From assembly GCF_008014775.2 (NCBI RefSeq), contig NZ_CP144914.1, forward strand, positions 2,294,001 to 2,358,000: DNA of 64,000 nt, read 5' to 3'. Below the pieces are notes generated by a model. It was not told where the DNA came from, did not search any database, and worked only from the letters and a program-made list of their open reading frames with translations. The stretch comes from Alkalicoccus halolimnae (GTDB taxonomy: Bacteria > Bacillota > Bacilli > Bacillales > Salisediminibacteriaceae). Of this stretch, positions 51,323 through 53,834 are shown piece after piece. The stretch's first letter is position 1. Each line of letters starts with the position of its first letter. The translations under genes were made by a program, and so were the position numbers.

Positions 51323-51676
51323 ATGAGTGCTAAAGATCAGTGTGAAATATTTACTTTTGATAAACAAAAAGTCGCTTCTTTGAAAGAAAAAATTTTAACT
51401 GAAGACGTAGAGGTCATGGCTGGAATGTTTAAGGCTCTTGCTGATAAAACTAGAATGCATATTGCATACGCTCTGAGCCTGGAAGAAGAGCTGTGTGTCT
51501 GCGATGCAGCACAGATTACGGACACCTCCACTGCCACAGCCTCTCATCACCTGCGCACGTTAAAAAAGCTTGGTCTTGCGAAGTTCCGTAAACAGGGAAA
51601 ACTTGCTTTTTATTCTCTGGATGATGACCATATCCGACAGATGATTCAAATGGCTTGCGAACACAGCCGGGAATAG
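51323..51676 (+). CDS. cadC: CadC-type ArsR/SmtB metal-sensing repressor
   Basis: The 117-residue winged-helix repressor controls cadA and releases DNA when it binds Cd/Pb/Zn. Metal ligands are Cys7 (SAKDQCEIF) and the alpha-3 pair Cys58/Cys60 (ELCVCD), followed by TASHHLRTLKKLGLAKFR, the recognition helix, and DDDHIRQMIQMA. In staphylococcal CadC, as I recall, position 11 is also cysteine; here it is threonine. ATG at 51323 follows AAGGAGAG. It is the first gene of the cadCA operon. Confidence 0.94.
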   Translation: MSAKDQCEIFTFDKQKVASLKEKILTEDVEVMAGMFKALADKTRMHIAYALSLEEELCVCDAAQITDTSTATASHHLRTLKKLGLAKFRKQGKLAFYSLDDDHIRQMIQMACEHSRE

Positions 51677-51713
51677 TGCAGCTGAAACTTGTGTATAGAA
51701 AGAAGGATAGCTG

Positions 51714-53834
51714 ATGGCAGACGAAAGGAATATCCAAAATAAAACCTACCGCATAGAAGGCTTTACCTGAGCAGGCTGCGCAAAAACGTTCGAAAAGAAC
51801 GTGCAGCACCTGGAAGGTGTTGAAAAAGCGGAAGTGAATTTCGGTGCCGCAAAAATTCATATTTCGGGGAGCGTATCCCGCAAAGCAGTGGAAAGAGCCG
51901 GCTCGTTTGAAAACTTAAAAATCCGAGAAGAAAATCAAGGTTCGGTTTCCCGTCCCCCCTTTTGGAAGGAAAAATCGAATATTAAAGTATATTCAGCGGT
52001 TCTCCTCCTCGCTGCGAGCATCATTTTTGGCGAATACTCTCCGGAGAGCAGCCTTCCTGTGCTCGGCTATGCCGGAGCGATTGCAGTCGGAGGATTCACT
52101 CTCTTTCGTAAAGGTCTGCAGAATCTGATACATGCCAAATTCGACATGAACACGTTGATGACAATCGCTGTAATAGGAGCAGCGATCATCGGGGAATGGC
52201 TGGAAGGAGCAGTCGTCGTTATTCTATTTGCCATAAGTGAAGCACTCGAGAGGTATTCGATGGATAAAGCGCGTCAGTCGATTTCCTCGCTGATGGACAT
52301 TGCTCCAAAAGAGGCTCTTATCCGCCGCGGCGGTCGGCAGATGATAATAAATGCAGCAGACATTAACATCGGGGATGTGATGATTGTTAAACCCGGTGAA
52401 AAGCTTGCTATGGATGGTCGTGTCATCAAAGGTAATACCTCCATTAATCAGGCAGCAATTACCGGGGAGAGTGTACCTGCAGAAAAAACAATAAACGATG
52501 ATGTCTACGCTGGAACTCTTAATGAAGAAGGCCTTCTCGAAGTGGAAGTGACGAAACGGGCGGAGGACACAACACTTGCTAAAATCATCCATCTCGTCGA
52601 AGAAGCTCAGGCGGAACGCGCCCCATCTCAGGCTTTCGTAGATAAATTCGCGAAGTATTATACTCCTTTTATCATAGTCATTGCTATTCTTACAGCGGTT
52701 ATTCCGCCGCTTGCTGTGGGAGGTTTATGGAATGAATGGGTGTATCTTGGTCTTGCCGTTCTAGTTGTAGGCTGTCCCTGCGCTCTCGTAGTCTCCACCC
52801 CGATAGCTGTCGTTACCGCTGTCGGTAATGCCGCTAAACACGGGGTACTTATTAAAGGAGGCGTCTATTTAGAAGCTGCCGGAACACTGAGAACAATTGC
52901 CTTTGATAAAACCGGAACGCTTACAGAAGGCGTCCCCGTAATCACAGACATACTCCCTTTTAACAGGGACGAAAACGACGTGCTTTCCGTTGCAGCTGCG
53001 CTTGAATCAGGTTCGCAGCACCCTTTGGCATCCGCTTTTCTTAAAAAAGCCGTGGGAGCGGATATTGATTACGAAAGTATTCAGGTTGATCATTTTCAAT
53101 CAATCACCGGGAGAGGAATAAAAGCGGAAATGAAAGGGACCGAGTACTATTTAGGGAGTCCTGCACTGTTTTCAGACCTTCTTTTAAAAACTAATGATGA
53201 AATAAATCGGAACATCACCAAAATGGAAAATGACGGTAAAACCGTTATGCTTCTTGGAACAAAAAAAGAGATATTATCTATTTTTGCTGTAGCAGACCGT
53301 ATACGTCCTTCTGCTAAAGCAGCGATAAGTAAACTAAACAAACTGGGAATGGAAACGATTATGCTTACCGGGGACAATGAACGGACCGCTTCCGCCATCG
53401 GAAGAGATGCTGGAGTCAAAAGCATTCAGGCCGGCCTCCTTCCGGAAGATAAGCTTTCAAGCATCAAAAAATTAACGGGTAAAGGGAAAAATATTGCTAT
53501 GGTCGGAGATGGAGTGAATGATGCGCCAGCTCTTGCTGCTTCCACAGTCGGAATTGCAATGGGGGGAGCGGGTACGGATACGGCGATAGAAACAGCTGAC
53601 ATTGCGCTCATGGCGGACGATCTGGCTCAGCTGCCCTACACTGTAAAACTGAGCCGTAAAGCCCTTCGCATCATTAAACAGAACATTACCTTTTCTCTTG
53701 CGCTTAAAGTGCTTGCGCTTTTACTCGTGATCCCGGGATGGCTCACATTATGGATTGCGATCATTGCAGATATGGGCGCCACCCTTCTTGTTACAATGAA
53801 CAGCCTCCGCCTGATGCGGATAAAAGATAAATAA
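51714..53834 (+). CDS. cadA: Cd/Zn/Pb P1B-type ATPase with in-frame UGA (Sec19) in the HMA motif
   Basis: The 706-residue pump exports Cd2+/Zn2+/Pb2+. It starts at the ATG at 51714, 37 bases after cadC. The N-terminal HMA reads [21 protein letters not shown], where the family has GFTCANC or CAGC, so the TGA (51768-51770) stands at the first cysteine of CxxC. After the TGA the frame runs without a shift through [17 protein letters not shown] to the end. Other motifs are intact: TGES, CPC (354-356), DKTGTLTEG (Asp398), GSQHPLA and [11 protein letters not shown] starting codon after the TGA (GTG at 51801) would remove the HMA entirely. With a hairpin 5-35 bases after the TGA this looks like UxxC by selenocysteine. 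A plain nonsense mutation is the alternative, with translation restarting downstream. Confidence 0.85.
51776..51806 (+). promoter_or_regulatory. Candidate SECIS hairpin of cadA
   Basis: ACGTTC (51786-51791) and GAACGT (51797-51802) pair perfectly over loop GAAAA, whose first base is G, 21 bases after the TGA. A lower stem CTGC/GCAG (51776-51779/51803-51806) extends it across an internal A-rich bulge. The geometry is that of a bacterial SECIS. Confidence 0.7.

What the first reader, a model, noticed from the sequence alone, without database searches (positions are those of the whole stretch)
51714..53834. cadA P-type ATPase with UGA for the first cysteine of its metal-binding CxxC (UxxC)
The frame from the ATG at 51714 reads a canonical HMA domain up to a TGA at 51768-51770 and then continues with no shift through the whole pump. 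The TGA is at the first cysteine of GFT-C-AGC. A 6-bp hairpin with a 5-base loop starting with G lies 21 bases after it. If read as selenocysteine, the metal-binding motif is UxxC, and pump synthesis would depend on selenium. I do not recall this in a Gram-positive Cd/Zn ATPase.
Basis: partly seen in the sequence, partly recalled or inferred. Interest (0 to 1): 0.95.

Follow-up and report, generated by a model that had tools for sequence, protein, structure and literature searches.

The report
Selenium-containing cadmium/zinc pump gene, cadA
A bacterial pump for toxic metals very probably carries selenocysteine, the rare selenium amino acid, at its metal-gripping site; this type of protein had been predicted before, and the sequences here show it in many Bacillus-like bacteria, often swapped for ordinary cysteine.

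Summary
The cadA frame 51714-53834 has one internal stop, TGA at 51768, at the first cysteine of the HMA metal-binding motif. The genome encodes SelA, SelB, a SelD with its own active-site TGA, and tRNA-Sec with anticodon TCA. 63 fetched pumps, this one included, carry TGA at exactly this codon; 60 of their 61 genomes have SelB. A hairpin of SECIS geometry that beats synonymous-codon shuffles is present in 35 of 43 TGA genes and 2 of 56 cysteine relatives. The selenocysteine reading is therefore supported by sequence; I saw no experiment. [quoted passage not shown] Added here: its frequency in Bacilli (38 of 64 SelB-bearing genomes among 100 examined, this one included), two SECIS geometries, at least 10 supported Sec/Cys changes on a tree, and a near-identical Cys/Sec gene pair from two species. 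What Sec does (soft-metal ligand; selenium-dependent pump synthesis) is inferred.

The parts
51323..51676 (+). ArsR/SmtB-family metalloregulator (CadC-like, with ELCVCD, cysteines intact) immediately upstream of cadA
   Evidence: NF033788 84.6 bits, cut-off 55; an ELCVCD-like motif lies within 700 nt upstream in 38 of 43 TGA pumps and 46 of 56 Cys pumps
51714..53834 (+). cadA: heavy-metal P-type ATPase, 706 residues with Sec at position 19
   Evidence: open except for TGA 51768; TIGR01512 518.7 bits, cut-off 313.5; TIGR01525 613.3, cut-off 346.25
51744..51890 (+). HMA metal-binding domain interrupted by the TGA
   Evidence: PF00403 38.6 bits, cut-off 24.8, residues 11-59
51768..51770 (+). Sec-UGA candidate, first residue of UxxC
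   Evidence: same codon in 63 pumps in all, this one included
51786..51802 (+). SECIS-like hairpin: 6-bp stem, loop GAAAA at 51792-51796
51778..51809 (+). possible lower helix of an extended SECIS (51778-51780 with 51807-51809)
   Evidence: paired in 93.3% of cells of 25 genes of this geometry, but 2 of its 3 pairs never vary, so weak
51801..51803 (+). GTG from which ORF calling starts a 677-aa product without HMA; not conserved

Best explanation
cadA here is a selenoprotein gene. The ribosome reads UGA 51768 as selenocysteine with SelB, Sec-tRNA(Sec) and the hairpin just behind the codon, giving a full-length cadmium/zinc P-type ATPase whose N-terminal HMA domain holds metal with U-x-x-C instead of C-x-x-C. 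Shown from sequence: the frame, the Sec machinery, conservation of the codon, its occurrence with SelB, selection on the hairpin, purifying selection on both sides of the codon. Inferred: Sec insertion itself (about 0.9), Sec as a soft-metal ligand in the HMA domain (about 0.6), and that the amount of full-length pump depends on selenium supply (about 0.7).
For: Machinery: tRNA-Sec 61.1 bits over cut-off 47, anticodon TCA; SelB 377.9 over 242.25; SelA 519.2 over 267.9; SelD 406.2 over 125 with its own in-frame TGA in AGUGCK. Conservation: TGA at the same codon in 41 of 89 pump loci of 74 genomes, this one included, in 2 named Halalkalibacter genes (L058, L059) and in 20 pumps of the wider phylum sample. 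Genomes: such a gene in 38 of 64 with SelB and 1 of 36 without (Fisher p 2.6e-9, species not independent; among genomes with an examined pump 38 of 54 and 1 of 20); 22 of 22 further TGA genomes have SelB. SECIS: hairpin at p 0.05 or less against synonymous shuffles in 35 of 43 TGA genes and 2 of 56 Cys genes; changes on both sides of pairs in both geometries. Coding: pN/pS 0.38 before and 0.37 after the TGA, 1.27 and 1.46 in shifted frames; second Cys kept in 43 of 43. The other three HMA domains found in the genome have no stop.
Against: No experiment. G034 has the TGA gene but no SelB, SelA or tRNA-Sec over cut-off; it is 76% complete, so this is open. The independent-pairs test of TGA against SelB on the tree is inconclusive (9 pairs, SelB differs in about 2.6 of them, median p 0.5). 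8 of 43 TGA genes do not reach 0.05 against synonymous shuffles. The loop here, GAAAA, has the G but not the commoner G[G/U]. In one search the number of pairs with changes on both sides and of pair types does not exceed shuffles (56/500 and 451/500; 145/500 and 500/500), and one slid version has the same covariation score. In 26 of 64 SelB-bearing genomes no TGA cadA was found (10 of the 26 had no examined pump).
Confidence: 0.88

Rival explanations
1. The UGA is a regulatory stop read through by a near-cognate tRNA (Trp or other), without selenium.
For: Would also keep the frame open; one genome with the TGA gene shows no sel genes over cut-off (G034).
Against: 60 of 61 genomes with the TGA gene have SelB; in the examined loci with the motif the other state of the codon is Cys; the SECIS-like hairpin is in 35 of 43 TGA genes and 2 of 56 Cys genes.
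Confidence: 0.05
2. The functional pump starts after the TGA (GTG 51801) and lacks the HMA domain; the upstream part is a leader or relic.
For: ORF listing gives this product; the protein database holds it in this form (P0003, 677 aa, the window's own product) and the nearest other entry, P0004 (85% identical, 648 aa), has no HMA either.
Against: GTG there in 17 of 43 genes; an internal start with a Shine-Dalgarno-like site within 60 codons in 9 of 43 (codons 11, 22, 37, 49 or 58), whereas 43 of 43 have an in-frame start before the TGA, 32 with such a site; codons before the TGA are under purifying selection.
Confidence: 0.04
3. Pseudogene, sequencing error or chance stop.
For: Cys codons TGC/TGT are one step from TGA.
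Against: Same codon in 63 genes of 61 genomes, no other stop in this frame, purifying selection, company of SelB and SECIS.
Confidence: 0.01

Closest known systems
[quoted passage not shown] TIGR01525/COG2217; representative ABB15669.1)
   Same: Heavy-metal P-type ATPase family with Sec as first residue of a UxxC motif; listed as predicted (PMC13188914 Table 1, PMC9312934 table) and counted in PMC5029168 Table 3 and PMC2398784.
   Different: The passages I read do not describe it in Bacilli, nor its SECIS geometries or Sec/Cys switching. I did not compare with ABB15669.1 itself and could not see supplementary lists.
CadA-type ATPases of Bacillota (database relatives 62-69% identical; 56 Cys genes)
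   Same: HMA, E1-E2 ATPase and hydrolase domains; CadC-like motif upstream in 46 of 56 Cys genes.
   Different: Cys at the site in the 56 genes whose DNA I read, with the SECIS-like hairpin in 2 of them. Codons of the entries were not read.
Solved zinc-transporting ATPase 4umv (ZntA, name recalled) and cadmium ATPase 7qbz
   Same: Nearest solved relatives by sequence (473 and 439 bits).
   Different: The 7qbz match starts only at residue 121; the listing says nothing of selenium.
Metal-binding (seleno)protein NF041115, UxxU
   Same: Weak match to residues 11-47 (30.4 bits, under cut-off 95).
   Different: Small separate protein (profile length 74) with two Sec according to PMC13188914 Table 1; not a member.

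Membership tests
Bacterial selenoprotein gene | In-frame UGA at a position that is Cys in homologues | tested here: met
Bacterial selenoprotein gene | SelA, SelB, SelD and tRNA-Sec in the same genome | tested here: met
Bacterial selenoprotein gene | bSECIS: loop 3-9 nt, upper stem 4-16 bp, G in first two loop bases, 16-37 nt spacing, energy at or under -7.5 (model as in PMC13188914, Fig 2 legend) | tested here: met
   loop 5, stem 6, G first, spacing 21, -9.6 kcal/mol over 39 nt; the commoner G[G/U] loop start is not met here but is in the other geometry (GUU)
Bacterial selenoprotein gene | UGA conserved across species | tested here: met
Bacterial selenoprotein gene | Selenium in the protein (75Se, mass spectrometry) | not testable with these tools
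   needs cells
Cation-transporting ATPase E1-E2 selenoprotein (UxxC) | TIGR01525 ATPase with UxxC | tested here: met
   613.3 bits, cut-off 346.25; U-A-G-C
Cation-transporting ATPase E1-E2 selenoprotein (UxxC) | Alignment with the representative ABB15669.1 | not tested
   not looked for
CadA (P1B-type Cd/Zn ATPase) | TIGR01512 over cut-off, CPC, DKTGT | tested here: met
   518.7 bits, cut-off 313.5; GCPC and DKTGT in the translation
CadA (P1B-type Cd/Zn ATPase) | Cd/Zn transport | not testable with these tools
   needs assay

The most novel reading that the evidence does not exclude
In Bacilli the residue at the first HMA ligand of CadA is a fast evolutionary switch between Sec and Cys, and where it is Sec the making of the whole metal pump is gated by selenium: cells trade a better soft-metal ligand against dependence on selenium, and genomes that carry both forms (G027, G062, G065, G096) can run either. 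Metal resistance would then be one reason why these bacteria keep the selenocysteine system, although the three formate dehydrogenase homologues found in this genome do without it.
Probability: 0.3. Interest if true: 0.75.

Novelty: new member of a known kind. Interest (0 to 1): 0.55.

Why it matters
UxxC P-type ATPases stand in the 2026 catalogue as predictions (PMC13188914). This set offers named Bacilli with the gene, a strong SECIS case, and two near-identical natural genes that differ at the Sec/Cys codon, so the question what Sec does in a metal-binding domain becomes testable. It also shows an annotation fault: the database product of this gene starts after the TGA and so loses the HMA domain. 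Sec-to-Cys changes were reported as few and mostly limited to FdhA and SelD (PMC1794560, abstract passage); hairpin relics in two Cys genes (L029, L110) suggest two more.

Tried and rejected
Rfam SECIS_1 (RF00031) in the own genome: nothing, but it rang in none of the 14 controls, so uninformative. The tRNA-Sec model gives many sub-threshold hits to ordinary tRNAs; only hits over the cut-off were used.

Formate dehydrogenase as the main user of Sec: three homologues (one over cut-off), no stop inside. The UGA genes known to me in this genome are selD and cadA; I did not search for all others.

Plasmid-borne TGA copies: the rows shown (40 and 30 of far more) name heavy-metal or cadmium ATPases, a regulator, or no feature; I did not read their codons and claim nothing.

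Promoter and terminator scans: about as many as in shuffles, not used. Independent-pairs test: too few informative pairs.

Rows left out: of the full-length matches listed, 18 lower-scoring ones were not fetched (none listed with TGA; G058 one TAG; G065:C46 two TAG and two TAA), and the tool cut its list. Partial or weak matches with TGA (G097:C20, G081:C9, G043:C1:3758668, G316, G153) were not looked at. The TAA listed for G091 (L095) was not traced. L051, L053, L056, L057 and L061 were dropped as the same contigs as those of G010, G002, G032, G039 and G028 (equal contig length and HMA sequence); L062 as distant; L064, L065 and L123 showed no motif.

Full report
OBSERVATION. In the window the frame from ATG 51714 (preceded by AAGAAGGA at 51700-51707) runs 18 codons to TGA 51768-51770 and then stays open to 53834. 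A plain ORF listing gives only a 677-aa product from GTG 51801. With the TGA read as a residue the protein has the HMA domain (PF00403, residues 11-59), E1-E2 ATPase and hydrolase domains; the 677-aa product has no HMA. TIGR01512 (cadmium family) and TIGR01525 are over their cut-offs. An ArsR/SmtB regulator with ELCVCD lies directly upstream at 51323-51676.

GENOME. The window lies in a single-contig genome of 3.69 Mb. It carries tRNA-Sec (61.1 bits, cut-off 47; ARAGORN: tRNA-SeC, anticodon tca), SelB, SelA and SelD in one stretch at about 1.968-1.974 Mb. SelD has its own in-frame TGA in KKAGUGCKI and scores 406 bits against TIGR00476; Sec-bearing selenophosphate synthetase is listed as experimentally verified (PMC13188914, section 7 part 1). 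Three formate dehydrogenase homologues have no stop. Of four HMA domains found in the genome only that of cadA has a stop. The genus is probably Alkalicoccus: a contig of same-genus genome G002 has the length of an Alkalicoccus urumqiensis contig and the same HMA sequence; inference.

CONSERVATION. The relatives set holds 100 genomes, this one included. I examined 89 pump loci in 74 of them; 41 loci in 39 genomes carry TGA at the first Cys of the HMA motif, the others TGT or TGC, none TAA or TAG. In the own genus 5 of 7 other genomes have the TGA gene, G006 has a Cys pump, and no pump of G003 was examined. Two more TGA genes come from named Halalkalibacter genomes (L058, L059). In a sample of 398 genomes of the phylum, 28 newly fetched loci gave 10 with TGA at this codon and one (L137) with TGC there and a TGA elsewhere; 10 further loci listed with a TGA were fetched, and all 10 have it at the HMA motif. 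That makes 63 genes in 61 genomes.

LINK TO SELENOCYSTEINE DECODING. Among the 100 genomes 64 have SelB and 63 SelA over cut-off; G007 (80% complete) has SelB but no SelA match. TGA cadA is in 38 of 64 genomes with SelB and 1 of 36 without (Fisher p 2.6e-9; among genomes with an examined pump 38 of 54 and 1 of 20; species are not independent). The exception, G034, is 76% complete with 6% contamination and also lacks SelA and tRNA-Sec over cut-off. In a second set of 56 genomes that I picked for carrying TGA or Cys pumps, all 22 TGA genomes have SelB, and the 8 without SelB have Cys at the site. A tree-based independent-pairs test was inconclusive.

SECIS. Most TGA genes have one of two hairpins: a 6-bp stem whose 5-nt loop, GAAAA here, starts 21 nt after the TGA, or a 7-bp stem with loop GUU starting 17 nt after it (I sorted 25 genes to the first and 18 to the second, and a few of the 25 have shortened stems). 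Against synonymous-codon shuffles that keep the protein, 35 of 43 TGA genes have a bSECIS-like hairpin at p 0.05 or less, and 2 of 56 Cys genes. For this gene p is 0.007. Pairs 21-33 and 24-30 of the first geometry and 20-24 and 15-29 of the second change on both sides in some genes and keep pairing; 94.7% and 99.2% of cells pair, against at most 51.6% and 42.0% with partners slid. Not all measures exceed their shuffles: the number of covarying pairs (56/500 and 145/500) and of pair types (451/500 and 500/500) do not, and one slid version of the first geometry has a covariation score of 0.128 against 0.124. The two Cys genes that do have the hairpin, L029 and L110, are sisters of TGA genes and look like relics of Sec-to-Cys change. 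The 20 TGA genes of the phylum sample were folded (-5.4 to -22.9 kcal/mol) but not tested against shuffles.

CODING. Across 903 pairs of TGA genes pN/pS is 0.38 in the nine codons before and 0.37 in the 45 codons after the TGA, and 1.27 and 1.46 in the shifted frames (synonymous distances are near saturation, so these are rough). The second Cys is kept in 43 of 43. An in-frame start before the TGA exists in 43 of 43; the GTG of 51801 is kept in 17 of 43.

SWITCHING. On a FastTree of 99 pumps built without the site, Sec/Cys needs 19 changes, at least 10 on branches with SH-like support of 95 or more. L029 (G011, TGT) and L030 (G027, TGA), from two genomes of one genus, differ at 9 of 2115 nt, TGT/TGA among them, all 9 near the 5' end; recombination may explain the identical remainder. 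G027, G062, G065 and G096 carry both forms.

MECHANISM. Best reading: SelB with Sec-tRNA reads UGA with the help of the hairpin, and Sec becomes the first metal ligand of the HMA domain. From general chemistry (recalled): a selenolate is more acidic and softer than a thiolate, so tighter or faster capture of Cd, Pb or Hg is the likely gain; a redox role of U-x-x-C is the alternative. If UGA stops translation when selenium is short, full-length CadA becomes selenium-dependent.

WHAT IS KNOWN. [quoted passage not shown] PMC5029168 (passages) counts 25 organisms and 32 proteins; PMC2398784 and PMC9312934 (passages) list it too. In 2006 Firmicutes/Bacillales had 3 selenoproteins of 3 families (PMC1794560, passages). 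The main text of PMC12013277 has no hit for ATPase or Bacillus.

VERDICT. Real and well supported by sequence; a new member, in a group where it is frequent, of a known predicted selenoprotein family.

Noticed in passing
L017:8201-9289 (own genome, about 1.970 Mb): selD is itself a TGA gene (AGUGCK); the ORF listing starts it downstream of the TGA.
   Followed up: partly
L017:13174-15579 and G000:C1:1974959-1975141: A CopA-like ATPase with two HMA domains and a small HMA-bearing frame (82 aa) lie next to selB and tRNA-Sec; these three HMA domains have no stop.
   Followed up: no
L029 against L030: Pumps of two genomes differ at 9 of 2115 nt, TGT against TGA included, all differences near the 5' end; hints at recombination around the Sec site.
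   Followed up: partly
L082 and L114 (G033): One genome with two TGA pumps, the second a divergent one with GLHUAGC.
   Followed up: no
L137 (G361): A pump with Cys in the HMA and an internal TGA elsewhere, in a genome without SelB over cut-off.
   Followed up: partly
A1 columns 40-45 (51807-51812 in the window): C[A/G]CCTG (CACTTG in one gene) behind the hairpin in the 25 TGA genes of this geometry; may be part of a lower SECIS helix that constrains the protein.
   Followed up: partly
P0003, P0004: The database copy of this gene's product and the nearest other entry are pumps without HMA, as expected if Sec genes are truncated by annotation.
   Followed up: partly
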